Part shown: positions 1,104-60,422 of the stretch, piece after piece
Numbering within the stretch: the stretch's first letter is position 1
Layout: each line of letters begins with the position of its first letter
Source of the DNA: Tragulus kanchil
Lineage: Eukaryota > Chordata > Mammalia > Artiodactyla > Tragulidae
NCBI GenBank assembly: GCA_022376925.1
Contig: JAIOJX010000026.1
Location: 204,754,900 to 204,818,899, forward strand
Direction: 5' to 3'
Length of the DNA stretch: 64,000 nt
The notes under the pieces: model-generated
What the model was told of the DNA's origin: nothing
Seen by the model: only the letters and a program-made list of their open reading frames with translations
Databases searched by the model: none
Program-made: the position numbers and the translations under genes

Positions 1104-3515
1104 AGTGTTGGTGATGGGTCAAGGTAAATAGAAACTGAGAATTGCTAATTGATAACAACTAGACAACGAACATGATTTCACCTTTTCTGCTGGAATGTTG
1201 GGCATAGAATCCAAATTTCAGTGGATTGGGAATGAATGGGAATGGGTAGGACCGATAAGGAAACTATGAGCAATGGCTGATATTTTGATGTCCCCTCAGC
1301 TTTATTAATTATAGGTGTTCATTGCTCAGTCAAGTCCAATTCTTTGGGACCCCACAGGCTGTGGCCCACCAGGCTCTTCTGTCCATGGGATTCTCCAGGC
1401 AAGAATACTGGAGTGGGCTGACATTTGAATCCCCAGGGAAACTATAGTTAGCCTTCATCTTTTCTGCAAGCCTTTACCTCAGAAAGCCCTTAATTGTAAT
1501 TCTTTCTCTGCTCCTTTGAGATATATGTCTGTAAAAAGCCTCTTGCCAATTTTACAACCCAGGACTGTCTTTCTTAAGTATCTGAGGGCCAACCCTTTGA
1601 AATATTAGCATCAACACCCACTCTTCCATTTAGTACTTAGGGAAGTCAAAGTAGGCCCGGATGGGCAGCAATATTTAGCTCATAGGCCCAAGACAGTATA
1701 CCAGTACAAATGAAAAATGGACAGCAGTTTCACTAGAAGACTTGTTCAGCTTTGGTTTTGGATGGGAATGTTGAGGGAAGTCTTCTCAGTAAGACAAATT
1801 TGAATTTGGACTAGTTGAGAGACACAAGGAAATTTTCCCAACTCAATAGATTTTCCCCTCTTGAAATGTCACTCTTAGCATTTTATACTTTTTACAAAGC
1901 AATTCTCTCTGAATGCTCCCTAAAATTTCTCTTGCACCTTCAGCCACTACCAACTCAAAGGGGAAGCCCTCTGAGAAGGGTATGTTTTATTGTTCATGCT
2001 TCCATTCAGCCCATAGTTATTATTTAGCAGCTCATAGAAGGGAGACTGGGATCATAGGAGATGGTAGCAAGTAGCAACAGGGCAAAGGAGAGACTTTAAA
2101 GTGGATTTACCTGTCTCATAAATTTAACAAAGATGAGTCATAACAGAAACCTTATGTTCTTATCTTTAAAATGGTCTATATTGCCTAGCTTTGTATTGTC
2201 CTTAGAAACTGATAAAAGTTTGCCCTTTGTCATTAGACACAACTGAGCACTTACCTTTAAACTGTTGTGTGTGTGGACAGAATAAAATATAAATGTCAGT
2301 TACTATGTCTAGTGTTGGTGATGGGTCAAGGTAAATAGAAACTGAGAATTGCTAATTGATAACAACTAGACAACGAACATGATTTCACCTTTTCTGCTGG
2401 AATGTTGGGCATAGAATCCAAATTTCAGTGGATTGGGAATGAATGGGAATGGGTAGGACCGATAAGGAAACTATGAGCAATGGCTGATATTTTGATGTCC
2501 CCTCAGCTTTATTAATTATAGGTGTTCATTGCTCAGTCAAGTCCAATTCTTTGGGACCCCACAGGCTGTGGCCCACCAGGCTCTTCTGTCCATGGGATTC
2601 TCCAGGCAAGAATACTGGAGTGGGCTGACATTTGAATCCCCAGGGAAACTATAGTTAGCCTTCATCTTTTCTGCAAGCCTTTACCTCAGAAAGCCCTTAA
2701 TTGTAATTCTTTCTCTGCTCCTTTGAGATATATGTCTGTAAAAAGCCTCTTGCCAATTTTACAACCCAGGACTGTCTTTCTTAAGTATCTGAGGGCCAAC
2801 CCTTTGAAATATTAGCATCAACACCCACTCTTCCATTTAGTACTTAGGGAAGTCAAAGTAGGCCCGGATGGGCAGCAATATTTAGCTCATAGGCCCAAGA
2901 CAGTATACCAGTACAAATGAAAAATGGACAGCAGTTTCACTAGAAGACTTGTTCAGCTTTGGTTTTGGATGGGAATGTTGAGGGAAGTCTTCTCAGTAAG
3001 ACAAATTTGAATTTGGACTAGTTGAGAGACACAAGGAAATTTTCCCAACTCAATAGATTTTCCCCTCTTGAAATGTCACTCTTAGCATTTTATACTTTTT
3101 ACAAAGCAATTCTCTCTGAATGCTCCTAAAATTTCTCTGGCTCCTTCAGCCACTACCAACCCAAAGGGGAAGCCCTCTGAGAAGGGTATGTTTTATTGTT
3201 CATGCTTCCATTCAGCCCATAGTTATTATTTAGCAGCTCATAGAAGGGAGACTGGGATCATAGGAGATGGTAGCAAGTAGCAACAGGGCAAAGGAGAGAC
3301 TTTAAAGTGGATTTACCTGTCTCATAAATTTAACAAAGATGAGTCATAACAGAAACCTTATGTTCTTATCTTTAAAATGGTCTATATTGCCTAGCTTTGT
3401 ATTGTCCTTAGAAACTGATAAAAGTTTGCCCTTTGTCATTAGACACAACTGAGCACTTACCTTTAAACTGTTGTGTGTGTGGACAGAATAAAATATAAAT
3501 GTCAGTTACTATGTC
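1104..3515 (+). repeat. Tandem duplication 1 (unit 1104-2310, copy 2311-3515)
   Basis: Period 1,207. The copies differ by a few bases (TGCTCCCTAAAATTTCTCTTGC against TGCTCCTAAAATTTCTCTGGC), all in the last third of the unit. Both contain the same BOV-A2 fragment. Best read as an unmerged contig overlap. Confidence 0.95.
1313..1437 (-). mobile_element. BOV-A2 fragment (second copy 2520-2644)
   Basis: Reverse-strand body (GTCCATGGGATTCTCCAGGC, AAGAATACTGGAGTGGGCTG). The head is truncated. Duplicated by tandem duplication 1. Confidence 0.88.
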
Positions 3516-3849
3516 ATACTTGGGGATATAGTCTATACCTTTTAATTTCTGAGAAATGTTATTGGGTTTTCTGAACTTATTATAATACATTATGTTCTTT
3601 CCTGTCACTGTGTACAATAGTCAAGAAGCCATTTTGGTGAAAATGCTTAAATGTAGGACTTCAGCCAATCAATCTCATAAAGGCACACTCTGAAAGTGTC
3701 TCAAATAAAACAACCTAATAAAATTCTTTCTATTGATCAAATTTATAAAATATGAAACAAGCAATATATATGCCATAGTGGTTTGATTATTGCCTCTTTG
3801 ATCTCCAAAAATCCACTGATTTGTTTTAAATTATACTAATTTTTACACA

Positions 3850-4025
3850 AAACCTCAATAAGAATGCGTACTATCATTTTCATTTTATAGGTAAGCAACT
3901 AAGAGATACAAAAGTGTAAGTGACTTAACCAAAACTGAAGATGGGAAATCCCATCAAATGGTTTGATGGGATTCAAACCCAGGCAGCCTGGCTTTAAAAA
4001 CCTCACTCTGGAGTCTGTATTATAT
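3850..4025 (+). mobile_element. MIR fragment (second copy about 4886-5061)
   Basis: Matches the MIR core and 3' part: ATTTTATAGGTAAGCAACTAAGAG, then GTGACTTAACC and ATTCAAACCCAGGCAGCCTG. A perfect hairpin lies inside (3947-3973). Confidence 0.75.
3947..3973. repeat. Perfect inverted repeat, 12-bp arms, 3-base loop
   Basis: AATCCCATCAAA, loop TGG, TTTGATGGGATT. It sits within the MIR and is repeated at 4983-5009 by tandem duplication 2. No function is implied. Confidence 0.9.
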
Positions 4026-4067
4026 GTAGCTTTTACAGAAGAAAAGAAAGTACTATGTACCTGCTAG

Positions 4068-4277
4068 GTCACTTCAGTCATGTCTGATTCTTTGCAGTAC
4101 TATGGACTGTAATTCATGAAGCTCTTCTGTCCATGGGATTCTCCAGGTGAGAATACTGGAATGGCTTGCCATGCTTCTCCAGGGGATCTTCCCAACTCAA
4201 GGATCCAATCCTCATGTCCTGTGTCTCCTGCACTGGCAGGCACTTTCCTTACCACTAGTGCCAAATGGGAAGCTCGA
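4068..4277 (-). mobile_element. BOV-A2 SINE (second copy 5104-5313)
   Basis: Reverse-strand element with CTCTTCTGTCCATGGGATTC and the head at its right end. Duplicated by tandem duplication 2. Confidence 0.88.
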
Positions 4278-5330
4278 TAAAGGAAGGTACATATTTCCAA
4301 AAACAGTTAGACATTCGTAATTCAGACAGTGAATCTCTGAAGCATCACCCTATGTATTTCCATTTCCACTTCATATACAGAGACTCTATACTATGCATGT
4401 TTGTGTGCTCTAGACTTTTCTCATGAAATATAAAATTTAGTGGGTTAAATAAATGCTATCAATAGCCAAATGTGGATTTTTCCTAAACATTGATTTTCCT
4501 AAATCAACATTTTCTACTTTAGAAAACCAAACTTAATAGAAGGAGGCAAATTTGTAATGTAAATGAACAGTAGACAATTATTTCATGGGTGAAAATTAAC
4601 ACTCATGCATTTGCTTAATAATACATTATGTTCTTTCCTGTCACTGTGTACAATAGTCAAGAAGCCATTTTGGTGAAAATGCTTAAATGTAGGACTTCAG
4701 CCAATCAATCTCATAAAGGCACACTCTGAAAGTGTCTCAAATAAAACAACCTAATAAAATTCTTTCTATTGATCAAATTTATAAAATATGAAACAAGCAA
4801 TATATATGCCATAGTGGTTTGATTATTGCCTCTTTGATCTCCAAAAATCCACTGATTTGTTTTAAATTATACTAATTTTTACACAAAACCTCAATAAGAA
4901 TGCGTACTATCATTTTCATTTTATAGGTAAGCAACTAAGAGATACAAAAGTGTAAGTGACTTAACCAAAACTGAAGATGGGAAATCCCATCAAATGGTTT
5001 GATGGGATTCAAACCCAGGCAGCCTGGCTTTAAAAACCTCACTCTGGAGTCTGTATTATATGTAGCTTTTACAGAAGAAAAGAAAGTACTATGTACCTGC
5101 TAGGTCACTTCAGTCATGTCTGATTCTTTGCAGTACTATGGACTGTAATTCATGAAGCTCTTCTGTCCATGGGATTCTCCAGGTGAGAATACTGGAATGG
5201 CTTGCCATGCTTCTCCAGGGGATCTTCCCAACTCAAGGATCCAATCCTCATGTCCTGTGTCTCCTGCACTGGCAGGCACTTTCCTTACCACTAGTGCCAA
5301 ATGGGAAGCTCGATAAAGGAAGGTACATAT

Positions 5331-7486
5331 TTCCAAAAACAGTTAGACATTCGTAATTCAGACAGTGAATCTCTGAAGCATCACCCTATGTATTTCCATT
5401 TCCACTTCATATACAGAGACTCTATACTATGCATGTTTGTGTGCTCTAGACTTTTCTCATGAAATATAAAATTTAGTGGGTTAAATAAATGCTATCAATA
5501 GCCAAATGTGGATTTTTCCTAAACATTGATTTTCCTAAATCAACATTTTCTACTTTAGAAAACCAAACTTAATAGAAGGAGGCAAATTTGTAATGTAAAT
5601 GAACAGTAGACAATTATTTCATGGGTGAAAATTAACACTCATTCATTTGCTTAAAAAAATATCTTTAGGGGCTTACAAAGTGCAAGACATTGTACAAGGT
5701 CCTGAAATAAGGTGGAAAAACAGTACCAATAAGTAAAAAGCATACATCAATTTAATATTGTTGGTAAACATCAAATTACTTGATATATAAAATATAAAAT
5801 ATATCTAAAGTCTGAAAATATCTAAAGATTATTGTGAAGCTTCAATGATAAGCTTAGTTTTAAAATATAATAATTAAAAGAAATTTCCTGCATGTCAAGG
5901 GCAGTTGCCCTTAAAGCTCACTTTTGAGTTTTTAATTAACATTACTAGTGTGCTTCTGCTTTATTCAAGTGCAAATGTAATACTAAAGAGTCATTCCTCA
6001 AGATTGTTATTTAAATAGGTTGTAATGTGTCAGATACAGAGTGAAAACAAAATCAAGAGCATTATAGCTGAAGAAAGATAAACTGCATCTTCTAAGGTTG
6101 CAAACACGGGGAATCTGTTAAATTCAGGTAAGCATCAATTATGACATTCATAACAAATGAAGAAAGGCTGTTACAGCAGTGACTAAAGACTTGTTCTGTG
6201 ACATCATGTCTGAACCACACAGGTGTTCTGCCGTGAAGACTCCATATTCCTTTCATCCTCTTTTATCTTTTTTTTTTTCCCTAAATGCTGTCAGCTCTAT
6301 TTGAAAAGTTTTAATGCACAAGTGTGAAAGAGCTTAACTCTGTGTAAAGTATTTCCAAACTGGTTCTTTTATAAAACATATAACACACAATGTTTATGTA
6401 ACTCTATTACATTTCCTAAATCAAAACATTTTCCAAAACAGTTAGACATTCGTAATTCAGACAGTGAATCTCAAACCCCTTAATTTTTAAAGAGACTCTA
6501 TACTATGCATGTTTGTGTGCTCTAGACTTTTCTCATGAAATATAAAATTTAGTGGGTTAAATAAATGCTATCAATAGCCAAATGTGGATTTTTCCTAAAC
6601 ATTGATTTTCCTAAATCAACATTTTCTACTTTAGAAAACCAAACTTAATAGAAGGAGGCAAATTTGTAATGTAAATGAACAGTAGACAATTATTTCATGG
6701 GTGAAAATTAACACTCATTCATTTGCTTAAAAAAATATCTTTAGGGGCTTACAAAGTGCAAGACATTGTACAAGGTCCTGAAATAAGGTGGAAAAACAGT
6801 ACCAATAAGTAAAAAGCATACATCAATTTAATATTGTTGGTAAACATCAAATTACTTGATATATAAAATATAAAATATATCTAAAGTCTGAAAATATCTA
6901 AAGATTATTGTGAAGCTTCAATGATAAGCTTAGTTTTAAAATATAATAATTAAAAGAAATTTCCTGCATGTCAAGGGCAGTTGCCCTTAAAGCTCACTTT
7001 TGAGTTTTTAATTAACATTACTAGTGTGCTTCTGCTTTATTCAAGTGCAAATGTAATACTAAAGAGTCATTCCTCAAGATTGTTATTTAAATAGGTTGTA
7101 ATGTGTCAGATACAGAGTGAAAACAAAATCAAGAGCATTATAGCTGAAGAAAGATAAACTGCATCTTCTAAGGTTGCAAACACGGGGAATCTGTTAAATT
7201 CAGGTAAGCATCAATTATGACATTCATAACAAATGAAGAAAGGCTGTTACAGCAGTGACTAAAGACTTGTTCTGTGACATCATGTCTGAACCACACAGGT
7301 GTTCTGCCGTGAAGACTCCATATTCCTTTCATCCTCTTTTATCTTTTTTTTTTTCCCTAAATGCTGTCAGCTCTATTTGAAAAGTTTTAATGCACAAGTG
7401 TGAAAGAGCTTAACTCTGTGTAAAGTATTTCCAAACTGGTTCTTTTATAAAACATATAACACACAATGTTTATGTAACTCTATTAC
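5331..7486 (+). repeat. Tandem duplication 3 (unit 5331-6410, copy 6431-7486)
   Basis: Period about 1,076 after the first 80 bases. It overlaps the second copy of duplication 2, so part of the sequence occurs three times (about 4295-4617, 5331-5654, 6431-6730). The start of the last copy is scrambled: a stretch after GTGAATCTC is replaced by AAACCCCTTAATTTTTAA, and 20 unmatched bases sit at the junction. Confidence 0.93.
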
Positions 7487-8520: not shown

Positions 8521-8662
8521 TAAGGTCCTTCTAGATTAACAGAAGTTTTAAGAGTTCATAATCTTATATTAACTTGAAAACAAAACATATATTAAGGACA
8601 ATTTTTGTTCCCCCCAATTTAACTCAAGTTAGGCAGGATTTTTTTTTTTTTTTTTTTGACTC

Positions 8663-8975: not shown

Positions 8976-10022
8976 CTATATATCCTCCTCAGAAAATAAA
9001 TTAATTGTTGATGAATCACTTCTTAAGACTTTGCCACTCACGATAAGCTTTATTGCCTTCTGAAACCATGGGTAAAAGAAAGCATAAATCAAGGGGTTCA
9101 TAGATGAGTTATAATAAACAAACCACACTAAAATTTCATAAACATAAGGAGGAGTTATAAAATTCATATAAGCATCAATCACAGCATCAATAACATATGG
9201 AAGCCAAGAGACCAGAAAAGCTGCCACGGCAATACCCAGTGTTTTAGCAGCTTTTCTCTCTCTCTTTGCTACTCTTTCCTTGTAACTCTCCAAAGAGGAT
9301 TGAGCTTGACTGGCTGTACTTTCTATCTTTCTGGCCTGGTATTTAGCCACCAAAAATATCTTACCATATATAAACACCATGACAACAGTGGGTAGAAAGA
9401 ATAAGAGAAAACAAAGTAGCACCCAGTTTTGATTCAATGGAGCCTGGCAGCCTCCGACACAGCTGAGAGCAACCACTAGGTCCTCGATCCCTTCCTCATT
9501 AGCCCCCGTGTAAAAGATAGAAAAACTATATGTGAGAGAAAAGAACCAGGAGAGAACAATGCATATTCCTGATACTGAGACAGTAAATTTGGTCGGGTAG
9601 GTCAGAGGGTCAGTAACAGCAATGTATCTATCAATAGAGATACAGCATAAATGAAATAAGGAAGCAAAACAGAATGAAGTATCAAAACAAGTATGAAATT
9701 TACAGTAACTCTCCCCAAAGTACCAGCAGCTCTCCACCGACCTCACTGTGCTGAAGGGCATCACCGTCACTCCCACCAAGAAGTCTGCACTGGCCAGGGA
9801 TGCGATCAGAAAGTTAGTGGGCGTGTGCAACTGTCTGAAGTGAAGAATAGCAATAATGACCAGTAAGTTTCCAAACACGGCCAGCACAGCCCCCAAACTG
9901 AGGACTGCATACAGAATCGCCCGAGGACCTGAAGAGTAAGGAGTCTTCACACAGGACCCATTCACATTCTCGAAGCAGAGTTCCACAGCTTGGGCTTGGG
10001 AGAAATTGTTCACCATTGCCAT
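8976..10022 (-). CDS. TAAR9: Trace amine-associated receptor 9, intact single-exon gene
   Basis: Class A GPCR of 348 residues in one uninterrupted exon. TAARs are olfactory amine receptors of the ciliary membrane that couple to stimulatory G proteins. Visible hallmarks: N-glycosylation sequons at N6 and N21; GN at 51-52 (TM1); D80 (TM2); C107 with a partner at C188 or C192 for the extracellular disulfide; D114 in TM3, the amine-binding aspartate; DRY at 131-133; VSWLPY at 271-276 (TM6); and the TAAR TM7 signature [16 protein letters not shown] at 305-320. The N-terminus (VNNFSQA, VELC) and C-tail ([15 protein letters not shown]) match mammalian TAAR9 as I remember it, and the length is normal. 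Two in-frame ATGs exist (M1 and M3); TAAR9 in other mammals appears to start at the second, so M3 is a plausible start. Neighbouring STX7 is the expected flank. Subfamily assignment rests on recall, not alignment. Confidence 0.95.
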
Positions 10023-11552
10023 CTTGTTGGAATGATTTTAAAGTTCTCCAATTTCCTATTTCAGTAATTTAAAACAAGAAAGAGATGACAATTTTTAAAG
10101 CTTCTGGAAGAGGAAACAATTTCTAGTTAAAATAAATGAAAAAATAAATGAAAGCTAGTAACCTTTCTCCCATTTGGGAAAGCATAAGAACTATAATCTC
10201 TTGGTCTTTTCAAAAATTATTCCCAAGTTTTCAATATATTTACAGTGGGAACTTGTTGCAGAAAGTCTTAAAATACAGTCAACATACTTAGCCCAATGAT
10301 ATGCCTTATAGAATGTAATTAGCTAATCATTAGAAAGTCCCCTATTTGTGTTACTTTACCTTTTGAAATCTCACCTGTAACTTCTTGAGTTGAGAGCTCA
10401 TTGGGCTACCAAAGTCTGGATTTTATCTACTAAGTCATCTCCTGAGTCGACCAAAAATATCTTACCATATATAAACACCATGACAACAGTGGGTAGAAAG
10501 AATAAGAGAAAACAAAGTAGCACCCAGTTTTGATTCAATGGAGCCTGGCAGCCTCCGACACAGCTGAGAGCAACCACTAGGTCCTCGATCCCTTCCTCAT
10601 TAGCCCCCGTGTAAAAGATAGAAAAACTATATGTGAGAGAAAAGAACCAGGAGAGAACAATGCATATTCCTGATACTGAGACAGTAAATTTGGTCGGGTA
10701 GGTCAGAGGGTCAGTAACAGCAATGTATCTATCAATAGAGATACAGCATAAATGAAATAAGGAAGCAAAACAGAATGAAGTATCAAAACAAGTATGAAAT
10801 TTACAGTAACTCTCCCCAAAGTACCAGCAGCTCTCCACCGACCTCACTGTGCTGAAGGGCATCACCGTCACTCCCACCAAGAAGTCTGCACTGGCCAGGG
10901 ATGCGATCAGAAAGTTAGTGGGCGTGTGCAACTGTCTGAAGTGAAGAATAGCAATAATGACCAGTAAGTTTCCAAACACGGCCAGCACAGCCCCCAAACT
11001 GAGGACTGCATACAGAATCGCCCGAGGACCTGAAGAGTAAGGAGTCTTCACACAGGACCCATTCACATTCTCGAAGCAGAGTTCCACAGCTTGGGCTTGG
11101 GAGAAATTGTTCACCATTGCCATCTTGTTGGAATGATTTTAAAGTTCTCCAATTTCCTATTTCAGTAATTTAAAACAAGAAAGAGATGACAATTTTTAAA
11201 GCTTCTGGAAGAGGAAACAATTTCTAGTTAAAATAAATGAAAAAATAAATGAAAGCTAGTAACCTTTCTCCCATTTGGGAAAGCATAAGAACTATAATCT
11301 CTTGGTCTTTTCAAAAATTATTCCCAAGTTTTCAATATATTTACAGTGGGAACTTGTTGCAGAAAGTCTTAAAATACAGTCAACATACTTAGCCCAATGA
11401 TATGCCTTATAGAATGTAATTAGCTAATCATTAGAAAGTCCCCTATTTGTGTTACTTTACCTTTTGAAATCTCACCTGTAACTTCTTGAGTTGAGAGCTC
11501 ATTAGGCTACCAAAGTCTGGATTTTATCTACTAAGTCATCTCCCCTGAGTCG
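9350..11552 (+). repeat. Tandem duplication 4 (unit 9350-10450, copy 10451-11552), splits TAAR9
   Basis: Period 1,101. The left edge falls inside the TAAR9 coding sequence with no sequence logic, creating the truncated receptor copy. The first copy has TCATCTCCTGAG at its end where the second has TCATCTCCCCTGAG. Confidence 0.95.
10398..11123 (-). pseudogene. Truncated second copy of TAAR9 (probable assembly artefact)
   Basis: Residues 1-225 are identical to the intact TAAR9, including the start region and TM1-TM5. After ...KIFLV the frame runs into non-homologous flank and adds 16 unrelated residues before a stop. TM6, TM7 and the C-tail are missing, so it could not work as a receptor. The copy belongs to the 1,101-bp head-to-tail duplication 9350-10450 / 10451-11552 and carries the same flanking DNA. 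Complete identity, plus the many equivalent duplications elsewhere in the window, points to an unmerged contig overlap rather than a real partial gene duplication. Confidence 0.85.
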
Positions 11553-13564
11553 TGCAGCAGTAATGATAAACTGTACTTCATTTTTTGAAAAGGAAAAAAG
11601 TAGATTACACCCCCTTCAAATTATAGCATCAGAAATCCCTGCAGTATAGAGTGTAAAGACTGAGGAAACTTTTATACATAATAGCTTTCTAAACTTACTT
11701 GGAAAGTGTATTTCCTCTGCTGCTTATATTTTCAGAATTTGTGGGGGTTTCTTTTCTGTTTTTCTTTTGTATTCCTCCATGGTTTGGATATCTTGAGATG
11801 GTTTGGAGAAGTATTCTTCTCAAACTGATACTAATATACAATCAGCATATGAGTATTTTTTGATAATAATATGTATCAGCATATAAGTATTTTTCTGGCT
11901 CATAACCAGTTTTTGAAGTCTAAAATCAGTAAGACTGATTAAAATAAGCAATGATTTACCTAGGCCCTCACCTTCCCATCCTTAAAAAACAGAGGTATGG
12001 GCAATACCTAGAATGGTCTGGGCGGAGGAGGTGGAGTTACATTAGCTACTTCTCTGGTGAGAATGGATTCATGCAAAGTTATCCAAAATTTAAGTAGAGA
12101 CCAAGTTTGTTTCTCCCAGTGTTTTTGTTTGTTTTTATACAGAGGAATATAGTCTTCGGATACATGAAAGAGCTCACCAAAGAATAGTAACTATTTTTCA
12201 CTTCATTTAGCCATGAAAAGTACAACCTTGAATCTGTATCTTTTTATTTTTAATTTTTTAATTTTGTAATTGAAAGATAATTGATTTACAAAATTCTGTT
12301 GCTTTCTGCCAAACATCAGCATGATTCAGACATAGGTATACATTTGTCCTCTCCTCCTTGAACCCTCCTCCCCTTTCCCTAAGACCCCGATTATTACTGA
12401 GCCCCTGTTGAAGTTCTCTCAGTCATACAGCAAATTATTCCCAAGTTTTCAATATATTTACAGTGGGAACTTGTTGCAGAAAGTCTTAAAATACAGTCAA
12501 CATACTTAGCCCAATGATATGCCTTATAGAATGTAATTAGCTAATCATTAGAAAGTCCCCTATTTGTGTTACTTTACCTTTTGAAATCTCACCTGTAACT
12601 TCTTGAGTTGAGAGCTCATTAGGCTACCAAAGTCTGGATTTTATCTACTAAGTCATCTCCCCTGAGTCGTGCAGCAGTAATGATAAACTGTACTTCATTT
12701 TTTGAAAAGGAAAAAAGTAGATTACACCCCCTTCAAATTATAGCATCAGAAATCCCTGCAGTATAGAGTGTAAAGACTGAGGAAACTTTTATACATAATA
12801 GCTTTCTAAACTTACTTGGAAAGTGTATTTCCTCTGCTGCTTATATTTTCAGAATTTGTGGGGGTTTCTTTTCTGTTTTTCTTTTGTATTCCTCCATGGT
12901 TTGGATATCTTGAGATGGTTTGGAGAAGTATTCTTCTCAAACTGATACTAATATACAATCAGCATATGAGTATTTTTTGATAATAATATGTATCAGCATA
13001 TAAGTATTTTTCTGGCTCATAACCAGTTTTTGAAGTCTAAAATCAGTAAGACTGATTAAAATAAGCAATGATTTACCTAGGCCCTCACCTTCCCATCCTT
13101 AAAAAACAGAGGTATGGGCAATACCTAGAATGGTCTGGGCGGAGGAGGTGGAGTTACATTAGCTACTTCTCTGGTGAGAATGGATTCATGCAAAGTTATC
13201 CAAAATTTAAGTAGAGACCAAGTTTGTTTCTCCCAGTGTGTTTTTGTTTGTTTTTATACAGAGGAATATAGTCTTCGGATACATGAAAGAGCTCACCAAA
13301 GAATAGTAACTATTTTTCACTTCATTTAGCCATGAAAAGTACAACCTTGAATCTGTATCTTTTTATTTTTAATTTTTTAATTTTGTAATTGAAAGATAAT
13401 TGATTTACAAAATTCTGTTGCTTTCTGCCAAACATCAGCATGATTCAGACATAGGTATACATTTGTCCTCTCCTCCTTGAACCCTCCTCCCCTTTCCCTC
13501 CTCAAACGACCCTTTCAGATTATTACTGAGCCCCTGTTGAAGTTCTCTCAGTCATACAGCAAAT
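11315..13564 (+). repeat. Tandem duplication 5 (unit 11315-12431, copy 12432-13564)
   Basis: Period about 1,117. It shares 11315-11552 with duplication 4, giving a triplication. The end of the first copy is corrupted: CCCTAAGACCCCGATTATT replaces the longer CCCTCCTCAAACGACC... of the second copy. The break falls inside an L1. Confidence 0.95.
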
Positions 13565-23818: not shown

Positions 23819-23851
23819 TAAATGTAGAAATATACTTTATTCATGAATTGA

Positions 23852-38675: not shown

Positions 38676-38679
38676 AAGC

Positions 38680-46072: not shown

Positions 46073-46319
46073 CTGCTTCATTAAGTAAGGCCACTCTCTC
46101 CCAGAATACTAACACACTGTGGAACTCTTTCATCTGAAAAATGTTTTCAGATGACCAGCTGTGTTTCTTAATCATTAACCTTCCAACGGTTATTACTCTG
46201 CCTGAAAGATTAAAGTGAGATATCAGTGTGTTTTGGAGTCAAGGAGAATAAAATTAGATTACAGAAGGGGAGTAAAATTAGATTACAGATGTTTCTAAAA
46301 AAAGTGTTTCTGTGCACAG

Positions 46320-46357
<38 letters not shown>

Positions 46358-47382: not shown

Positions 47383-47416
<34 letters not shown>

Positions 47417-48194
47417 CTACGTACTCAGTCGTGTCCAACCTATTGCAGCCCCATGGACTGTAACCACTAGGCTCCCTCTGTCCTTGGGCTTCTCCAGGCA
47501 GGAATACTGGAGTAGGTTACCATTTCCTCCTCTAGCACAGCAGTGTAAGGTAACCGGTATTCTGCTTTGGGGTGACTCTTGTTCTCTTTGGTTATTCTTG
47601 GAGAAACAAGGAAAGGAATAGCCTGAAGGCCCCATGTGGTCTCCTGCAGGGTCTGTAGGATTAGTGCGTGGATGATTATTCCAGTTTGTCCCCCAGTGTT
47701 GGCTCCACCTTGCTCTTCTGGCTTCAGGTCTGTTCTCAGAGATAGCCAAAAGGGCCTCTCCTGTTTGTGGCTGTCTCACTGCTGATTAGAAATAATGGTA
47801 GTCTGCCTCAGGCTACCTATAGGAAAATAAAGAGAGTTTATAATTTTAATTTGCCTATGTGGAAAATCAGGACCTTTATCCAAAAAGGGGAGCCCAGAAG
47901 GTCTTTTTCCACAAGATAGGGCAGATATCCTATCCTGGAAAAGTTAAACTGTGTCAGAAATTCTGGAGAGAAGGTAAGGAATGACTGAAGTGCACAGAGA
48001 TGACAGAAGCAGTGTGCGCTTTGTGGTATGGAGGTTGCCTGGGTTAGAGATGATCTCTGCGTTGGAACTGGAAGGAAGGAAGAGGGGACTTGGGTCAGGT
48101 CTCACTCCCTCAGGAAGAGATCAGTCCACAAGACAAGACAGATGATGCGAGGTAAGCAGGACCAGAGTTGCATGTTCATGGTGTGGTTGATTGC
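46073..48194 (+). repeat. Tandem duplication 16 (unit 46073-47133, copy 47134-48194)
   Basis: Period 1,061. It contains a (GT)n microsatellite and a BOV-A2 fragment. Near-identical apart from AAGAAGGGAG against AAAAAGGGGAG. Confidence 0.95.
46360..46480 (-). mobile_element. BOV-A2 fragment with (GT)n upstream (copy 47421-47541)
   Basis: (GT)15 at 46322-46351 leads into TCAGTCGTGTCCAACCTATT, CCATGGACTGTAACCACTAG and GGAATACTGGAGTAGGTTAC, reverse strand. The same unit recurs 1,061 bp on. Confidence 0.88.
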
Positions 48195-50063
48195 TACTTC
48201 TGAGACTACACTCTGGTTTGGGGCAGTCTTGGAGTATGTGGTAGGGCGATGAGAAGACCTGAAGCTCTTGTTTTTAACAGCCTTGTGAAGAGCTGTTAAA
48301 GAGACCAGGACTTTCCAACCCTGAGAAGGTATAGTCACCACCTTCAGATATTTGAAGCACTGTCTTGTCTGAAACACAAGCAATGTGCTTTCCTTGATCC
48401 TAGAGGCCTCCACAGATGAACAGAGCAGCGATAGTCCAACTTCAGCTGAAGAAGGAACAGGGGCTTTTGAGTAATCCTAGTTGTTTAGAGAGAGAATTGT
48501 CCACCTCAGAAGCAGCGCAGTCCTTAGCAGCATGTGGTGGTAAGACATTTCTCAGGTCTGTTATTAAGAGTTTTAGACCTGAATAATGGTTCAGACTGAG
48601 TGACTTTACAATTTTGATATTAAGCTTTTATTCATTAGCAAGTAATTTATAGAGCAACAACTGCTTGCTCATCATTGTTGAAGTCCCTGGATATCCAGTG
48701 GTGAACAAGATCCTAAAGGTCCTATTCTCCTGTAGTTTCCAGTGTGAGGAGAAACTGATGGGGGTTTTTTTGTTTTTTAAAGAATTAATGAACAACCAAA
48801 TTTCCTGTGAAGGAAAAAAAAAATGAAATTGATGTAAGAGCAGTTGATTAGGGTGAAGCTGCCTTGCCTTAGAACAGAGTGCAGAAGAAGAGGGGCAGGT
48901 AGTGAGAAGATACTCAGGAAGAACATGTGAGACAGATACTGCCTCAGGCTACCTATAGGAAAATAAAGAGAGTTTATAATTTTAATTTGCCTATGTGGAA
49001 AATCAGGACCTTTATCCAAGAAGGGAGCCCAGAAGGTCTTTTTCCACAAGATAGGGCAGATATCCTATCCTGGAAAAGTTAAACTGTGTCAGAAATTCTG
49101 GAGAGAAGGTAAGGAATGACTGAAGTGCACAGAGATGACAGAAGCAGTGTGCGCTTTGTGGTATGGAGGTTGCCTGGGTTAGAGATGATCTCTGCGTTGG
49201 AACTGGAAGGAAGGAAGAGGGGACTTGGGTCAGGTCTCACTCCCTCAGGAAGAGATCAGTCCACAAGACAAGACAGATGATGCGAGGTAAGCAGGACCAG
49301 AGTTGCATGTTCATGGTGTGGTTGATTGCTACTTCTGAGACTACACTCTGGTTTGGGGCAGTCTTGGAGTATGTGGTAGGGCGATGAGAAGACCTGAAGC
49401 TCTTGTTTTTAACAGCCTTGTGAAGAGCTGTTAAAGAGACCAGGACTTTCCAACCCTGAGAAGGTATAGTCACCACCTTCAGATATTTGAAGCACTGTCT
49501 TGTCTGAAACACAAGCAATGTGCTTTCCTTGATCCTAGAGGCCTCCACAGATGAACAGAGCAGCGATAGTCCAACTTCAGCTGAAGAAGGAACAGGGGCT
49601 TTTGAGTAATCCTAGTTGTTTAGAGAGAGAATTGTCCACCTCAGAAGCAGCGCAGTCCTTAGCAGCATGTGGTGGTAAGACATTTCTCAGGTCTGTTATT
49701 AAGAGTTTTAGACCTGAATAATGGTTCAGACTGAGTGACTTTACAATTTTGATATTAAGCTTTTATTCATTAGCAAGTAATTTATAGAGCAACAACTGCT
49801 TGCTCATCATTGTTGAAGTCCCTGGATATCCAGTGGTGAACAAGATCCTAAAGGTCCTATTCTCCTGTAGTTTCCAGTGTGAGGAGAAACTGATGGGGGT
49901 TTTTTTGTTTTTTAAAGAATTAATGAACAACCAAATTTCCTGTGAAGGAAAAAAAAAATGAAATTGATGTAAGAGCAGTTGATTAGGGTGAAGCTGCCTT
50001 GCCTTAGAACAGAGTGCAGAAGAAGAGGGGCAGGTAGTGAGAAGATACTCAGGAAGAACATGT
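47803..50063 (+). repeat. Tandem duplication 17 (unit 47803-48938, copy 48939-50063)
   Basis: Period 1,136. It chains with duplication 16, giving three copies of the segment at about 46742-47130, 47803-48190 and 48939-49327. Confidence 0.95.
48650..48765 (-). mobile_element. Probable L2 fragment (copy about 49786-49900)
   Basis: CCAGTGGTGAACAAGATCCT, AGGTCCTATTCTCCTGTAGT resemble the reverse L2 3' end. Confidence 0.5.
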
Positions 50064-51009
50064 AGACGGAAGCCACAGCTAATATTTTTAAAAAGCAATC
50101 CAGAGCTTAGGGTGTTCAGAAAACAGGAAGAAAAGAAAAATCCACTGTGGCCAAAGCACAGCACTTGAAGCAGGAGTGGCAAGAGGTGAAATCAGAGAGG
50201 GGTGGGGCGGGTCGCCTAGACCCTTGGAGGCCATGGGAAGCCTTCTGGAGCTTAGATTTCATCCTAAGAGGCAGTGAAAAGACACAGTCGGTTCTGAACT
50301 TTGAAAAGGTTACCCCAGCTGCTGCTTAGAAAATAGACTTTGAGGAAATAAGGAAACACCCTGGCCATGGCTGAGTTCTAAGGAAAGAGATGTTGCCTTG
50401 CACCAGGGTGGTAGCCAGAGGTAGAAAGAATGTTGGATGTACTGTGGAGGCACAGCAAGCAGGACTTGCTGATGCATGGGAGAGTGAGGCTAGAGAGAGA
50501 GAAAGGCGACCCAGATGACTCCATGGCTTTTTCATTGAACAACCAAGTGGATGGTGGTATGCACTTAGATGGGAAGAATTAGAGTTTAGGAGATGTAGGG
50601 AGAGTATTATTTTGGCCAAGTAAATTTTGAGATGTCTTTTAAACATCCAAGTGGTGATGTCAAACATCTAGTTTATATACATGGATTTGGAGATCAGAGT
50701 ATCATCAGAATACAAATTTTATTTAAAAGGGTAAGTCTAAAATCATCCCATAGAAGGGATTAGGATTCAGAGAGGAGGGCTGGAGTATTTTAAAAACTGT
50801 AGGCATCAGAAAAGCAGGGAGAAAGCAGTGTAGTCAGGGAAGGAACGACCAGTCAGGCAAGAAGAAAATTAAGCCCTCTGGGTTTCTAGAAATTAAAAGA
50901 GTGCTTTAAGAATGAGTGAGGCATCACTGTGTCTAATGCTGCCAAGAGACTGAACAAGATGAAAGCAGAGAATTGAATCTAGCAAACTGGTGACTTTGAA
51001 AGAATAAAT
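50064..51009 (+). other. Unique STX7 intronic stretch, possibly an ancient repeat
   Basis: Phrases such as CACCAGGGTGGTAGCCAGAG, CAGATGACTCCATGGCTTTT, TTTTGAGATGTCTTTTAAAC and ATCCAAGTGGTGATGTC look like a common old mammalian interspersed repeat. I cannot name the family with confidence. Confidence 0.45.
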
Positions 51010-53504: not shown

Positions 53505-55716
53505 TCTGCCATAGAAGCAGAAAGAGGGGCAAAGAAAATATGCATTTAGTTTTTCACTACAAAAGGGAGGTTCTGGTGAGGGTACACTAGTGAAAGAACT
53601 GTCCTTGAAGGTGAGAGGCAATGGGGAATGGACCACTCATGAATCGTTTGCCTTTTTGTACACTGTACAGATTTGTTGCACAGTGTGTTGTGAACTCGAA
53701 ATTTAATAGGTAAAAATGGAAAGTTTCTGAGTTGCTGAACGAAATAGGAGACACAGGCCTCAGATAGTGGGAGGGAAAGCTGTTAAAAGTTTATGGGAAG
53801 AAGAGAAAGTGAACTGCTTGAAATTTTGACAGTTGAGAGAATGGGTGTACCAGGGAAGCAGAAAAAGGTTGTATAGCAAGATGAGTACTTGTGTGGGGTT
53901 TGGGGTCATGAATTTAGTGAAATGAGTCATCACTGTGTATTTTTTAAATTCTGAGCTTAAATGTTTAATGATGGGAAGTTTAGATTTTGGTAGAGCAAAC
54001 TACTGCTAAAAATCTAACCTGCCAACCAGTGTGCATTACTGATGAGGGCTCTGCAGAAATCACGTGGAAGTGAAAGAGAGAAGTGTGAAATTTCATTTCA
54101 CTTTTTCCCCCATCTGGTAATGCTAATAATACTAGATGCGACTGAATAAGATGGTACTTTGCACCGTATATAGGTGTTTCTCCTCATACTACATTTGCAT
54201 CTTTTGAATTTGTGTCAATACAAATTGTCTAATTTTACAAAGTAAATCTAAAGTGAAGATGCTGTAAGTAAGGTAATATCCTTGTATTTAGAATATGTGC
54301 ATGTGTTCAACTAAAGCTGAAGTCTTTCTGAGTATTGCAGTGGGAAAATATTAGTTTCAATCAAGATCAGTGAAAACTTGTAAAATATTGAGTTGTATTG
54401 TTTACTTTATACCAAAAATAGCAATCAGAAGACTTTTGATTCTTGGAGGAACCCAAAAATAACATTTAGTAAGAGTAGAATTTTGTGAGTTTTCAAAAGA
54501 ATATTCCAGTGGTTCTGTTTTTCAAAAGTAGGATAGATGAAACAAAATGTTTTGAAACTTAAATGGTATTTTTCTCTATTAAGCTACTTTTTATTAAAAG
54601 AGAGCAAGGTTTTATTTTCTGCCATAGAAGCAGAAAGAGGCAAAGAAAATATGCATTTAGTTTTTCACTACAAAAGGGAGGTTCTGGTGAGGGTACACTA
54701 GTGAAAGAACTGTCCTTGAAGGTGAGAGGCAATGGGGAATGGACCACTCATGAATCGTTTGCCTTTTTGTACACTGTACAGATTTGTTGCACAGTGTGTT
54801 GTGAACTCGAAATTTAATAGGTAAAAATGGAAAGTTTCTGAGTTGCTGAACGAAATAGGAGACACAGGCCTCAGATAGTGGGAGGGAAAGCTGTTAAAAG
54901 TTTATGGGAAGAAGAGAAAGTGAACTGCTTGAAATTTTGACAGTTGAGAGAATGGGTGTACCAGGGAAGCAGAAAAAGGTTGTATAGCAAGATGAGTACT
55001 TGTGTGGGGTTTGGGGTCATGAATTTAGTGAAATGAGTCATCACTGTGTATTTTTTAAATTCTGAGCTTAAATGTTTAATGATGGGAAGTTTAGATTTTG
55101 GTAGAGCAAACTACTGCTAAAAATCTAACCTGCCAACCAGTGTGCATTACTGATGAGGGCTCTGCAGAAATCACGTGGAAGTGAAAGAGAGAAGTGTGAA
55201 ATTTCATTTCACTTTTTCCCCCATCTGGTAATGCTAATAATACTAGATGCGACTGAATAAGATGGTACTTTGCACCGTATATAGGTGTTTCTCCTCATAC
55301 TACATTTGCATCTTTTGAATTTGTGTCAATACAAATTGTCTAATTTTACAAAGTAAATCTAAAGTGAAGATGCTGTAAGTAAGGTAATATCCTTGTATTT
55401 AGAATATGTGCATGTGTTCAACTAAAGCTGAAGTCTTTCTGAGTATTGCAGTGGGAAAATATTAGTTTCAATCAAGATCAGTGAAAACTTGTAAAATATT
55501 GAGTTGTATTGTTTACTTTATACCAAAAATAGCAATCAGAAGACTTTTGATTCTTGGAGGAACCCAAAAATAACATTTAGTAAGAGTAGAATTTTGTGAG
55601 TTTTCAAAAGAATATTCCAGTGGTTCTGTTTTTCAAAAAGTAGGATAGATGAAACAAAATGTTTTGAAACTTAAATGGTATTTTTCTCTCTATTAAGCTA
55701 CTTTTTTATTAAAAAT
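53505..55716 (+). repeat. Tandem duplication 18 (unit 53505-54617, copy 54618-55716)
   Basis: Period 1,113. Differences cluster at both sides of the junction: GAGGGGCAAAG against GAGGCAAAG at the copy-two start; CTCTATTAAG against CTCTCTATTAAG at the copy-one end. Confidence 0.95.
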
Positions 55717-55725
55717 GATCTGTGA

Positions 55726-56060
55726 GGCTTCCCCTGGTGGTCCAGTGGGTAAGGAAACCGCCTTGCAGTGCAAGGGGCGCCGGTTCGATCCCTGGCCTGG
55801 GAAGATCCCACGTGCTGCGAAGTGGCTGGAGTGATGTGTCCAGTTACCGAGCCAGAGCTCTGGAGCGCATGTGCCCAGAGCCAGAGCTCTGCAGTGACAG
55901 ATGCAACCGCGATGGGAGGCCCACAGGAGCCAAAGAACAAAGACGGATGAAAATGGAGAAATGAAAGACCAATAGAAGTGGCCCGCCAACTCTCCTCCCT
56001 CCCGAACCCGACCTCCGCCCAAAATAAATAAATAAATAAATCTTAAAAAAAAAAAAAAAT
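55726..56060 (+). mobile_element. CHR-related tRNA-Glu SINE (second copy at 56878-57211)
   Basis: Plus strand. Intact Pol III boxes: A-box-like TGGTCCAGTGG and B-box GGTTCGATCCC. The body ends in (AAAT)n and A14. ATCTGT flanks both sides as a short possible target duplication. An identical copy at 56878-57211 comes from tandem duplication 19. Confidence 0.88.
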
Positions 56061-56234
56061 CTGTAGTGTTATTTCTTTGCTTTACTCATAACATATTTAA
56101 ACTAGATTAGAATAGTATAATTTATATTAAACATAAAATATTCAAATATTGGAAATATAAGGTATATTGGAAATAAAATTATATTAATATCACTTTCAAA
56201 GTATACATGAGTGAATGAGTGAGTGAGTGAAATC

Positions 56235-56432
56235 TACTCAGTTGTGTCCACCTGTTTGCGACCCCTTGGACTGTAGCCAGTCAGGCTCCTCTGTCCATGG
56301 GATTCTTCAGGCAAGAATACTGGAGTGAGTTGTCATGCCCTTCTCCATGGGATCTTCCCAACCCAGGGACTGAATTCAGGTCTCCCACATTGCAGGAGGA
56401 TTCTTTACCATCTGAACCGTCAGGGAAGCCCA
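56235..56432 (-). mobile_element. BOV-A2 SINE (second copy 57387-57584)
   Basis: TCAGTTGTGTCCACCTGTTT, CCTTGGACTGTAGCCAGTCA, head GAACCGTCAGGGAAGCCC, reverse strand; preceded by (GAGT)n. Confidence 0.9.
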
Positions 56433-58239
56433 AGTGTATGTAGTAAATAGGTATAATAAACCAGAGCTTCATTAGAGATTTCTCTGTGGAGCATTTAAAA
56501 TGATTAAGAAACCTGGTTTTATCCTAAGGGAGAAAGTGTTCTGTTGACTCACAGTTAGCAAGGTGTTTGTGCTTCACCCTGACAGTATTCTCCATCACTG
56601 GTCCTTGCCCGAAAATGGCATTAAGTCTTCTCAGTGCAGCATCAGTGAAAACTTGTAAAATATTGAGTTGTATTTTTTTTCTAGCAATCAGAAGACTTTT
56701 GATTCTTGGAGGAACCCAAAAATAACATTTAGTAAGAGTAGAATTTTGTGAGTTTTCAAAAGAATATTCCAGTGGTTCTGTTTTTCAAAAAGTAGGATAG
56801 ATGAAACAAAATGTTTTGAAACTTAAATGGTATTTTTCTCTCTATTAAGCTACTTTTTTATTAAAAATGATCTGTGAGGCTTCCCCTGGTGGTCCAGTGG
56901 GTAAGGAAACCGCCTTGCAGTGCAAGGGGCGCCGGTTCGATCCCTGGCCTGGGAAGATCCCACGTGCTGCGAAGTGGCTGGAGTGATGTGTCCAGTTACC
57001 GAGCCAGAGCTCTGGAGCGCATGTGCCCAGAGCCAGAGCTCTGCAGTGACAGATGCAACCGCGATGGGAGGCCCACAGGAGCCAAAGAACAAAGACGGAT
57101 GAAAATGGAGAAATGAAAGACCAATAGAAGTGGCCCGCCAACTCTCCTCCCTCCCGAACCCGACCTCCGCCCAAAATAAATAAATAAATAAATCTTAAAA
57201 AAAAAAAAAAATCTGTAGTGTTATTTCTTTGCTTTACTCATAACATATTTAAACTAGATTAGAATAGTATAATTTATATTAAACATAAAATATTCAAATA
57301 TTGGAAATATAAGGTATATTGGAAATAAAATTATATTAATATCACTTTCAAAGTATACATGAGTGAATGAGTGAGTGAGTGAAATCTACTCAGTTGTGTC
57401 CACCTGTTTGCGACCCCTTGGACTGTAGCCAGTCAGGCTCCTCTGTCCATGGGATTCTTCAGGCAAGAATACTGGAGTGAGTTGTCATGCCCTTCTCCAT
57501 GGGATCTTCCCAACCCAGGGACTGAATTCAGGTCTCCCACATTGCAGGAGGATTCTTTACCATCTGAACCGTCAGGGAAGCCCAAGTGTATGTAGTAAAT
57601 AGGTATAATAAACCAGAGCTTCATTAGAGATTTCTCTGTGGAGCATTTAAAATGATTAAGAAACCTGGTTTTATCCTAAGGGAGAAAGTGTTCTGTTGAC
57701 TCACAGTTAGCAAGGTGTTTGTGCTTCACCCTGACAGTATTCTCCATCACTGGTCCTTGCCCGAAAATGGCATTAAGTCTTTCTCAGTGCAGCATTTTAG
57801 GCAACCATTCCCAGTAGACTGAAGTCGACATACAAATAAAACTGATTATTGTTCAAAGTCTAGAAGATCATAGTTCATCAAAGACATGCTTAGATTTAGT
57901 TCTCAAACTTTAGATTTATTTCTCATTTAGATTTAGTTCTCAAGTTTTTTTTTTTTTTTTTTTTAAAGCAGTACCATTTTCCTTAGCAGCCTCAGGAAAG
58001 GAGATATACACTGGTTTGCCCTTTAACGTCTATATTTGGTTAGACATCCTACCTCTGATGTATAGGGCAAGGATAAACAAGTCTCTGTGTGTTGAAAAGG
58101 CTTGAGCCTATTATATGAAGTGAAACAGAGTAGGGGATTTTACACAGCCCCTTTATCCTGGCACAAACGCACTCAGTTCTGAGAAATGGATTCTGGACAC
58201 ACAAAATACTCAGAGAGACCTCACGTTTTTGAAATGTGT

Positions 58240-58435
58240 GTTTGTCACTCAGTCTTGTCCAACACTTTGCAACCCCGTGAATGTTACCCTGTCAGGCTCC
58301 TCTGTCCATGGAATTCTCCAGGCAAGCATATTGGAGTGGATTGCTGTTCCCTTCTCCAGGGGATTTTCCTAACCCAGGGATCAAACCCGCGTCTCCCACA
58401 TTGCAGGCAGATTCTTTACCATCTGAGACACCATG
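58240..58435 (-). mobile_element. BOV-A2 SINE (second copy 59387-59582)
   Basis: TCACTCAGTCTTGTCCAACA, TGTCCATGGAATTCTCCAGG, GGGATCAAACCCGCGTCTCC, reverse strand. Confidence 0.9.
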
Positions 58436-58521
58436 TTTTTGAAAGAAGCAGATTATATATTGGTATTCCATTGCATAATTAAAGATATATTTTTAACTTT
58501 TAAAAACAGAAGTATTATATA

Positions 58522-58557
<36 letters not shown>
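58522..58557. repeat. (CA)n microsatellite (second copy about 59669-59706)
   Basis: About 18 uninterrupted CA units. The duplicate 1,147 bp on is of very similar length, which a real old duplication would be unlikely to keep. Confidence 0.92.
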
Positions 58558-58560
<3 letters not shown>

Positions 58561-59668
58561 AAAGAGTTGTGTAGAAGTTACTAGTATAGCTTGAATGGGT
58601 TATAACACCACACATGTCAGGACACGTAGAACATTCCACACATGTAGCACGTTGCCAGCCTCCTGAAGACTTACTCATACTTAGAGCCCATCCATACTAT
58701 TCAGAGCTAACCAATGTCCTGATTTCCAGTGTCACTGATTAAGATTCCTAGTTCTTAATTTTATCTGATGGAATCACGTAGTATGTTTTATGTCGAACTT
58801 CTTTCTCCCATTAGGCTTTTGCAGTTCATCTGTGCTGTTGCAGGTACCTGTCAGTCATTTGCTTTCATTACTGTATTCAGACATAGCACATCTAGTTTTT
58901 CTTTCTACTGTTGCTGGACATTTGTAGTGTTTCTGTGTTTTGGCTTTGTTTGATTTTGTTTTTTGCTTTATGAACAATGCTGACCATTCTCGTACTTTCT
59001 TTTGTTTCATGGGTACATTTAGCAATTGAGTTGCTGTATTGTAGGATGGTGTGTGTTCACCGGTAGCAGAAACAAATAAACATTTACCCAGTGTAGTGGC
59101 CCCAGGTTATATTCTCAGCAGCCAGTACAATCAGAGTTTATGTCGCTCCAAATTCTTGCCTGCATTTCGCATCTACCAGGTATTTAAATTTTATCCATTT
59201 TAGCCACAGTTGTGCTCCATTGCAATTCCCAGATGAGAATCAGACTTTCAGAATATCACTGAGCTGAGAAAAATATAAAACCAGTGATGCACAGCCCCTT
59301 TATCCTGGCACAAACGCACTCAGTTCTGAGAAATGGATTCTGGACACACAAAATACTCAGAGAGACCTCACGTTTTTGAAATGTGTGTTTGTCACTCAGT
59401 CTTGTCCAACACTTTGCAACCCAGTGAATGTTACCCTGTCAGGCTCCTCTGTCCATGGAATTCTCCAGGCAAGCATATTGGAGTGGATTGCTGTTCCCTT
59501 CTCCAGGGGATTTTCCTAACCCAGGGATCAAACCCGCGTCTCCCACATTGCAGGCAGATTCTTTACCATCTGAGACACCATGTTTTTGAAAGAAGCAGAT
59601 TATATATTGGTATTCCATTGCATAATTAAAGATATATTTTTAACTTTTAAAAACAGAAGTATTATATA

Positions 59669-59709
<41 letters not shown>

Positions 59710-60422
59710 AAAGAGTTGTGTAGAAGTTACTAGTATAGCTTGAATGGGTTATAACACCACACATGTCAGGACACGTAGAACATTCCACACATGTAGCACG
59801 TTGCCAGCCTCCTGAAGACTTACTCATACTTAGAGCCCATCCATACTATTCAGAGCTAACCAATGTCCTGATTTCCAGTGTCACTGATTAAGATTCCTAG
59901 TTCTTAATTTTATCTGATGGAATCACGTAGTATGTTTTATGTCGAACTTCTTTCTCCCATTAGGCTTTTGCAGTTCATCTGTGCTGTTGCAGGTACCTGT
60001 CAGTCATTTGCTTTCATTACTGTATTCAGACATAGCACATCTAGTTTTTCTTTCTACTGTTGCTGGACATTTGTAGTGTTTCTGTGTTTTGGCTTTGTTT
60101 GATTTTGTTTTTTGCTTTATGAACAATGCTGACCATTCTCGTACTTTCTTTTGTTTCATGGGTACATTTAGCAATTGAGTTGCTGTATTGTAGGATGGTG
60201 TGTGTGTTCACCGGTAGCAGAAACAAATAAACATTTACCCAGTGTAGTGGCCCCAGGTTATATTCTCAGCAGCCAGTACAATCAGAGTTTATGTCGCTCC
60301 AAATTCTTGCCTGCATTTCGCATCTACCAGGTATTTAAATTTTATCCATTTTAGCCACAGTTGTGCTCCATTGCAATTCCCAGATGAGAATCAGACTTTC
60401 AGAATATCACTGAGCTGAGAAA

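What the first reader, a model, noticed from the sequence alone, without database searches (positions are those of the whole stretch)
1104..60422. About twenty adjacent ~1.1-kb head-to-tail duplications: a systematic false-duplication signature
Twenty independent direct duplications have periods between 1,036 and 1,207 bp. They are adjacent with no spacer or only a few bases. They cut through a coding exon, a CpG island, SINEs, L1s and unique DNA alike. No biological mechanism I know makes one unit length at twenty unrelated sites with near-zero divergence. Two neighbouring contigs that share about 1.1 kb and were placed end to end without merging would give exactly this. About 22 kb of the 64 kb would be surplus.
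Basis: partly seen in the sequence, partly recalled or inferred. Interest (0 to 1): 0.88.

Follow-up and report, generated by a model that had tools for sequence, protein, structure and literature searches.

The report
Assembly artefact: 1.1-kb overlaps duplicated
The twenty back-to-back 1.1-kilobase duplications are real in the file but almost certainly not in the animal: the assembly software apparently printed the shared overlap between neighbouring pieces twice, and it seems to have done so throughout this genome, so roughly a third of the sequence here is surplus.

Summary
Self-alignment finds 20 adjacent head-to-tail duplications, periods 1036-1206 bp, spacers -9 to +25 bp; 22.3 of 64 kb is surplus. 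It is not local: I asked for 20 ten-kb stretches of the same 3.17-Gb assembly at round-number coordinates; 15 exist, on 14 large contigs, and 15 of 15 carry the same thing, with 29% of their bases surplus (bootstrap 24-35%). Offsets in window plus stretches are 1025-1231 bp (63 diagonals, 62 units) and no inverted copies were found.

Three tests point to unmerged overlaps, not biology. Copy differences pile up at unit ends. In 79 of 84 informative indels the copy lacking bases is the one next to its own unit's end (p=3e-18). In simulated random tandem duplications 1.3% of runs avoid nesting and 0 of 4000 also keep the observed junction spacing.

The pieces are as short as 1.8 kb with no N between them, so they look like layout/consensus units inside contigs, not scaffolded contigs. 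A fixed overlap just above 1024 bp fits wtdbg2/wtpoa-cns "nodes" (recalled, not shown). Raw reads were not available.

The parts
1099..3515 (.). Junction 1: copy A 1099-2309, copy B 2305-3515, period 1206
   Evidence: self-blastn; differences listed
3582..5654 (.). Junction 2: A 3582-4618, B 4618-5654, period 1036
5325..7486 (.). Junction 3: A 5325-6410, B 6426-7486, period 1101; ten bases-missing events in copy B within 86 bp of its start
9349..11552 (.). Junction 4: A 9349-10449, B 10450-11552, period 1101; doubles 689 of 1059 bases of the TAAR9 frame
11315..13565 (.). Junction 5: A 11315-12436, B 12432-13565, period 1117
13461..15651 (.). Junction 6: A 13461-14542, B 14560-15651, period 1099, 17-bp spacer
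16605..18952 (.). Junction 7: A 16605-17781, B 17776-18952, period 1171
19803..22075 (.). Junction 8: A 19803-20926, B 20952-22075, period 1149, 100% identical, 25-bp spacer
21643..23822 (.). Junction 9: A 21643-22737, B 22729-23822, period 1086
23848..26170 (.). Junction 10: A 23848-25008, B 25010-26170, period 1162
29864..32044 (.). Junction 11: A 29864-30954, B 30955-32044, period 1091
31927..34216 (.). Junction 12: A 31927-33070, B 33071-34216, period 1144; doubles the CpG island
37704..40015 (.). Junction 13: A 37704-38858, B 38860-40015, period 1156
39619..41827 (.). Junction 14: A 39619-40723, B 40726-41827, period 1107
42980..45113 (.). Junction 15: A 42980-44035, B 44059-45113, period 1079, 23-bp spacer
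46073..48200 (.). Junction 16: A 46073-47140, B 47134-48200, period 1061
47803..50067 (.). Junction 17: A 47803-48933, B 48939-50067, period 1136
53505..55714 (.). Junction 18: A 53505-54599, B 54618-55714, period 1113, 18-bp spacer
55477..57795 (.). Junction 19: A 55477-56642, B 56641-57795, period 1164
58143..60424 (.). Junction 20: A 58143-59273, B 59290-60424, period 1147, 16-bp spacer
8979..10037 (-). Intact TAAR9 reading frame (353 codons, stop to stop)
   Evidence: best solved relative is named Trace amine-associated receptor 9, chain 8itf_R, E 1.3e-207
10401..11138 (-). False truncated second TAAR9 copy in copy B of junction 4 (246-codon frame whose last codons run over the junction)

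Best explanation
The duplications are an assembly artefact. A long-read assembler laid each contig out as a chain of short consensus units, neighbouring units sharing a fixed anchor of about 1.1 kb. Each unit got its own consensus. At many joins the two consensuses of the shared anchor were not recognised as the same and were written one after the other instead of being merged. Shown here: the duplications, their narrow length range with a floor just above 1024 bp, their presence in every stretch of the genome that I read, and the error pattern at the unit ends. Inferred: that the fault arose at the consensus-joining step. Recalled and only consistent with the data: that the program is wtdbg2/wtpoa-cns, whose graph nodes are four 256-base bins (1024 bases) and whose neighbouring layout units share one node.
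For: (1) Genome-wide sample: 15 of 15 ten-kb stretches on 14 large contigs carry it, with 43,534 of 148,069 unmasked bases (29%) surplus. In one search, of 42 rows outside the window 28 fall into pairs 1062-1163 bp apart at 12 distinct places on other contigs, and 14 are unpaired (my tally). (2) One length: 63 diagonals of 300 bp or more in window plus stretches (62 units; one is split by masked letters) have offsets 1025-1231, mean 1110, sd 38.5; the 16 direct hits of 100 bp or more and 97% or more outside offsets 900-1400 are all two-period echoes; no inverted hits. (3) Differences crowd at unit ends: over 59 complete units, 32.8 and 28.3 events per kb within 15 bp of the two ends (partly alignment-edge effects), 13.9 and 10.9 at 15-60 bp, 0.4-2.1 beyond 150 bp. 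(4) Direction: at 15-150 bp from the ends the copy that lacks bases is the one near its own unit's terminus in 79 indels and the other copy in 5 (p=3.4e-18). (5) Error type: 145 indels to 94 substitutions over 65,146 bp. (6) Some spacers of 15 bp or more resemble the sequence just beyond the shared stretch, as ragged unit ends would: 7 of 15 usable ones have control p<=0.01 on at least one side. (7) Simulated real tandem duplications: 1.3% of 4000 runs avoid nesting and 0 of 4000 also keep junction spacing of 1780 bp or more, a threshold set after seeing the data.
Against: No raw reads, read depth, assembly record or second assembly could be examined. The mean offset is 1110 and not 1024, so the node reading needs fuzzy unit ends or deletion-rich reads. 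In the middle of units (150 bp off each end) there are 29 substitutions and 36 indels in 47,446 bp, a little more than two perfect consensuses of one locus should show, and there indels hardly outnumber substitutions. One unit outside the window (L006) is only 97.5% identical with 21 mismatches. Eight of 15 usable long spacers match neither neighbouring sequence at p<=0.01. Taking 29% off leaves 2.24 Gb (2.06-2.42), below the 2.6 Gb k-mer estimate for sika deer (passage seen) and the 2.58 Gb of a complete giraffe (passage seen), so either the stretches overstate the surplus or sequence is also missing.
Confidence: 0.96

Rival explanations
1. Separately assembled contigs with about 1.1 kb of shared ends were placed end to end by a scaffolder, or gaps were filled, without merging.
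For: It gives the same tandem layout; homotype false duplications near contig boundaries are described for vertebrate assemblies (PMC8081667, passages seen).
Against: The 19 complete pieces between junctions are 1786-5945 bp, far too short for contigs of a 32-contig 3.17-Gb assembly. There is no N in the window. Contig overlaps should vary widely in length, but 63 diagonals have an sd of 38.5 bp.
Confidence: 0.08
2. Real recent tandem duplications in this species, by a replication or repair mechanism with a fixed step of about 1.1 kb.
For: The arrangement head to tail is what a tandem duplication gives; some junctions share 1-9 bp.
Against: 15 of 15 stretches affected; differences at unit ends and in the ragged-end direction, 79 to 5; no nesting and a minimum spacing that random events did not give in the simulation; a partial second TAAR9 and a doubled CpG island.
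Confidence: 0.01
3. Heterotype false duplication: the two haplotypes of each stretch placed side by side.
For: A few units differ by clustered substitutions (junction 10, five within 20 bp; L006, 21 mismatches).
Against: Some units are 100% identical (junction 8; two units in L018). Haplotype copies have no reason to be one length. Differences are concentrated at unit ends.
Confidence: 0.02

Closest known systems
Homotype false duplication (Vertebrate Genomes Project; PMC8081667 and PMC9516828, passages seen)
   Same: Two near-identical copies of one locus side by side, arising from under-collapsed sequence and consensus errors and not from haplotype difference.
   Different: Those passages describe them near contig boundaries, often about as long as the reads, and most often with an assembly gap between the copies. 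Here the length is fixed near 1.1 kb, there is no gap, and the density is about one per 3.5 kb in the stretches read (42 units in 148 kb).
Heterotype false duplication (same papers, same passages)
   Same: Adjacent copies in one haploid assembly.
   Different: Driven by haplotype divergence; here several copies are identical and the differences sit mainly at unit ends.
wtdbg2/wtpoa-cns layout units sharing a graph node (recalled; the wtdbg2 paper is not held; [quoted passage not shown]
   Same: A fixed overlap of at least 1024 bases between neighbouring units would explain the length floor of 1025 and the tiling.
   Different: No record ties this assembly to that program; failure at this rate is, to my knowledge, not the program's normal behaviour.

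Membership tests
Homotype false duplication | Copies come from one locus, differing by consensus error and not by haplotype | tested here: met
   End-biased, direction-biased differences, 145 indels to 94 substitutions; indirect, since no reads were seen
Homotype false duplication | Assembly gap between the copies (reported as most often present, PMC9516828, passages) | tested here: not met
   No N in the window; spacers -9 to +25 bp. This is a usual trait and not a strict definition, so I say it works like one and do not file it as one
Homotype false duplication | Length about that of the sequence reads, at contig boundaries (PMC8081667, passages) | tested here: inconclusive
   Offsets 1025-1231 bp; read length and contig boundaries unknown
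Homotype false duplication | Reduced read depth in the copies | not testable with these tools
   No reads available
Heterotype false duplication | Copies differ like haplotypes, with differences spread along the unit | tested here: not met
   0.4-2.1 events per kb beyond 150 bp against 11-14 per kb at 15-60 bp from the ends; some units identical
Real tandem duplications | Events placed independently, so that some nest in or cross earlier ones | tested here: not met
   Simulation: 1.3% of 4000 runs without nesting, 0 of 4000 with the observed spacing too
wtdbg2 node overlap | Shared stretch of at least 1024 bases with little spread | tested here: met
   63 diagonals, 1025-1231; the figure 1024 is recalled
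wtdbg2 node overlap | Assembly made with that program | not testable with these tools

The most novel reading that the evidence does not exclude
A chromosome-scale ruminant assembly of 3.17 Gb carries, by extrapolation from 15 stretches, on the order of 0.8-0.9 million unmerged consensus overlaps, about 0.9 Gb of false sequence. It would be a genome-wide, fixed-length failure of layout-consensus joining that ordinary contiguity statistics do not reveal and that gap-based screens for false duplication would miss.
Probability: 0.75. Interest if true: 0.42.

Novelty: not a real feature. Interest (0 to 1): 0.27.

Why it matters
It is not biology, but it matters to anyone using this genome. In what I read, about a third of the bases are surplus and a receptor gene and a CpG island are doubled or cut. 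If this holds throughout, gene models gain false exons and truncated copies, short reads map ambiguously in the doubled stretches, and estimates of genome size, segmental duplication and copy number are wrong. The signature (an offset just over 1024 bp, no gap letters, missing bases next to each unit's own end) is easy to screen for in other long-read assemblies.

Tried and rejected
Real duplication by a mechanism with a fixed step: rejected on occurrence in 15 of 15 stretches, end-biased and direction-biased differences, and the simulation. Scaffolded contigs: disfavoured because the pieces are 1.8-5.9 kb. Haplotype copies: disfavoured. Fixed-window polishing error: rejected by inspection, because the advances between successive shared stretches (669-4851 bp in the window) are not multiples of one step; no statistical test was made.

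A gene-level count of doubled homeobox domains in the own genome was attempted five times and never answered. Identification of the species and its assembly paper was attempted by karyotype (16 of 32 contigs above 70 Mb) and by papers (searches; passages of one paper) and not achieved. Of the papers opened I saw only passages returned by the find function, at most 12 per paper; none of those passages described this exact artefact. That is no claim that it is unpublished: ten searches of an open-licence library were made and the other papers were seen as listing lines only.

Rows dropped: 7 of 66 diagonals that were cut by the end of a stretch or by masked letters were left out of the 59 complete units; two of those 7 are halves of one unit. 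Three of the 39 non-window units (L004, L006, L008) come from loci that matched the window's sequence and were not picked by position. One of the 16 long spacers contained masked letters and its score is not used. One search printed only diagonals of 300 bp or more within offsets 900-1400, so shorter fragments there are not in the count of 63.
Full report
OBSERVATION. Self-alignment of the 64-kb window (blastn, word 28, plus strand, listing hits of 100 bp or more at 90% identity or more, any distance) prints 28 rows. Twenty are primary direct duplications whose two copies are adjacent, with periods 1036-1206 bp and identities 97.7-100%. The other 8 are short echoes at the sum of two successive periods. 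The window holds no N. B copies cover 22,343 bases, 35% of the window. Spacers range from -9 to +25 bp.

CHANCE AND CONTROLS. In the window plus 15 ten-kb stretches no inverted match of 100 bp or more at 95% or more was found. Direct matches of 100 bp or more at 97% or more fall into two classes: those with offsets of 900-1400, of which the 63 that are 300 bp or longer have offsets 1025-1231 (mean 1110, sd 38.5), and 16 rows outside that band, all echoes at 2140-2279 bp. The 63 diagonals stand for 62 units, because masked letters split one unit of L021 in two. The band 900-1400 does not create the result, since all hits outside it are listed too.

GENOME-WIDE SAMPLE. The window lies at G000:C15:204754900-204818899 in an assembly of 3,167,203,957 bases in 32 contigs. 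I asked for 20 ten-kb stretches at round-number coordinates; five lay beyond the ends of small contigs and 15 exist, on 14 large contigs. Each of the 15 carries at least one such duplication (locus by locus). Surplus is 43,534 of 148,069 unmasked bases, 29%; resampling the 15 stretches gives 24-35%. A DNA search with one unit of the window returned 45 rows; 3 are the window itself, and of the other 42, 28 fall into pairs 1062-1163 bp apart at 12 distinct places on other contigs while 14 are unpaired (my tally). If 29% holds throughout, about 0.93 Gb is surplus and about 2.24 Gb (2.06-2.42) remains. That is less than the 2.6 Gb k-mer estimate given for sika deer (PMC10372904, passage seen) or the 2.58 Gb of the complete giraffe (PMC12621783, passage seen). 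I count that mismatch against the precision of the estimate.

ERROR PATTERN. I aligned the two copies of 59 complete units (20 in the window, 36 in the 15 stretches, 3 in loci fetched by similarity; 7 of 66 diagonals cut by stretch ends or masked letters were left out). There are 94 substitutions and 145 indels over 65,146 bp; split by source, 24 and 56 in the window, 70 and 89 elsewhere. Event density is 32.8 and 28.3 per kb within 15 bp of the two ends (partly alignment-edge effects), 13.9 and 10.9 at 15-60 bp, 4.0 and 6.2 at 60-150 bp, and 0.4-2.1 further in. Leaving out the outermost 15 bp, 79 indels within 150 bp of an end have the missing bases in the copy that is at its own unit's terminus (B near the start, A near the end) and 5 have the opposite (binomial p=3.4e-18). 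A real tandem duplication gives no such rule; two separately computed consensuses with thin ragged ends do. In the middle, 150 bp off each end, there are 29 substitutions and 36 indels in 47,446 bp. With slightly different unit limits, one search gives for the window 21 substitutions and 55 indels over 22,338 bp, with 26 of 76 events in the first tenth of the unit and 26 of 76 in the last. Of 16 spacers of 15 bp or more, one held masked letters and is ignored; 7 of the other 15 match the sequence just before copy A or just after copy B better than control at p<=0.01, and 8 do not.

TILING. The 19 complete pieces between junctions are 1786-5945 bp, the three smallest 1786, 1793 and 1800. Successive shared stretches overlap each other by at most 437 bp, and each begins at least 669 bp after the preceding junction, so none contains another's junction. 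Simulating 20 sequential tandem duplications at random in the collapsed length, 1.3% of 4000 runs have no event covering an earlier junction, and 0 of 4000 also keep all junctions 1780 bp or more apart; that threshold was chosen after seeing the data.

MECHANISM. The most likely mechanism is failure to merge neighbouring consensus units that share one anchor of fixed size. The floor at 1025 bp recalls the 1024-base node (four 256-base bins) of wtdbg2 and the node-length overlap of adjacent units that wtpoa-cns joins; both are from memory, as the wtdbg2 paper is not held. PMC12037172 (passages) confirms only the division of labour: wtdbg2 computes contigs as overlapping sequences of reads and wtpoa-cns computes the consensus. 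Shown: duplication, length law, presence in every stretch read, end errors. Inferred: joining step. Consistent but not shown: the program.

CONSEQUENCES IN THE WINDOW. The minus-strand frame 8979-10037 is TAAR9 (8itf_R, E 1.3e-207). Junction 4 repeats 689 of its 1059 bases, giving a false truncated copy at 10401-11138. The CpG island appears at 32251-33000 and again at 33501-34250. STX7 was not checked.

KNOWN KINDS. False duplications are well described: heterotype and homotype (PMC8081667, passages; PMC9516828, passages). The present case works like a homotype duplication, but it lacks the gap that usually separates the copies, has a fixed length, and is very dense. I therefore class it as not a real feature of the genome, with modest interest as a warning and as a screening signature.

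Noticed in passing
G000, contig lengths: Sixteen of 32 contigs exceed 70 Mb (73-297 Mb), suggesting about 16 chromosomes, a low number for a ruminant (from general knowledge); three small contigs have round lengths (200,000, 242,000 and 225,000 bases), like pieces cut during Hi-C correction.
   Followed up: partly
L006 (G000:C1, about 52.856 Mb): One unit is only 97.5% identical with 21 mismatches, far more than the others; possibly one copy is a badly supported consensus or another haplotype.
   Followed up: no
42816-42910, 26729-26772, 52270-52315: Short perfect or near-perfect tandem repeats of 47, 22 and 22 bp, outside the 1.1-kb class; probably ordinary.
   Followed up: no
window, pieces between junctions: The three smallest pieces are 1786, 1793 and 1800 bp, close to 7 x 256 = 1792; a hint of bin-based layout, not tested statistically.
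   Followed up: no
L010, L016, L021, L033: Some fetched stretches contain masked (N) runs; in L010 and L021 some runs recur at the same 1.1-kb spacing as the duplications.
   Followed up: no
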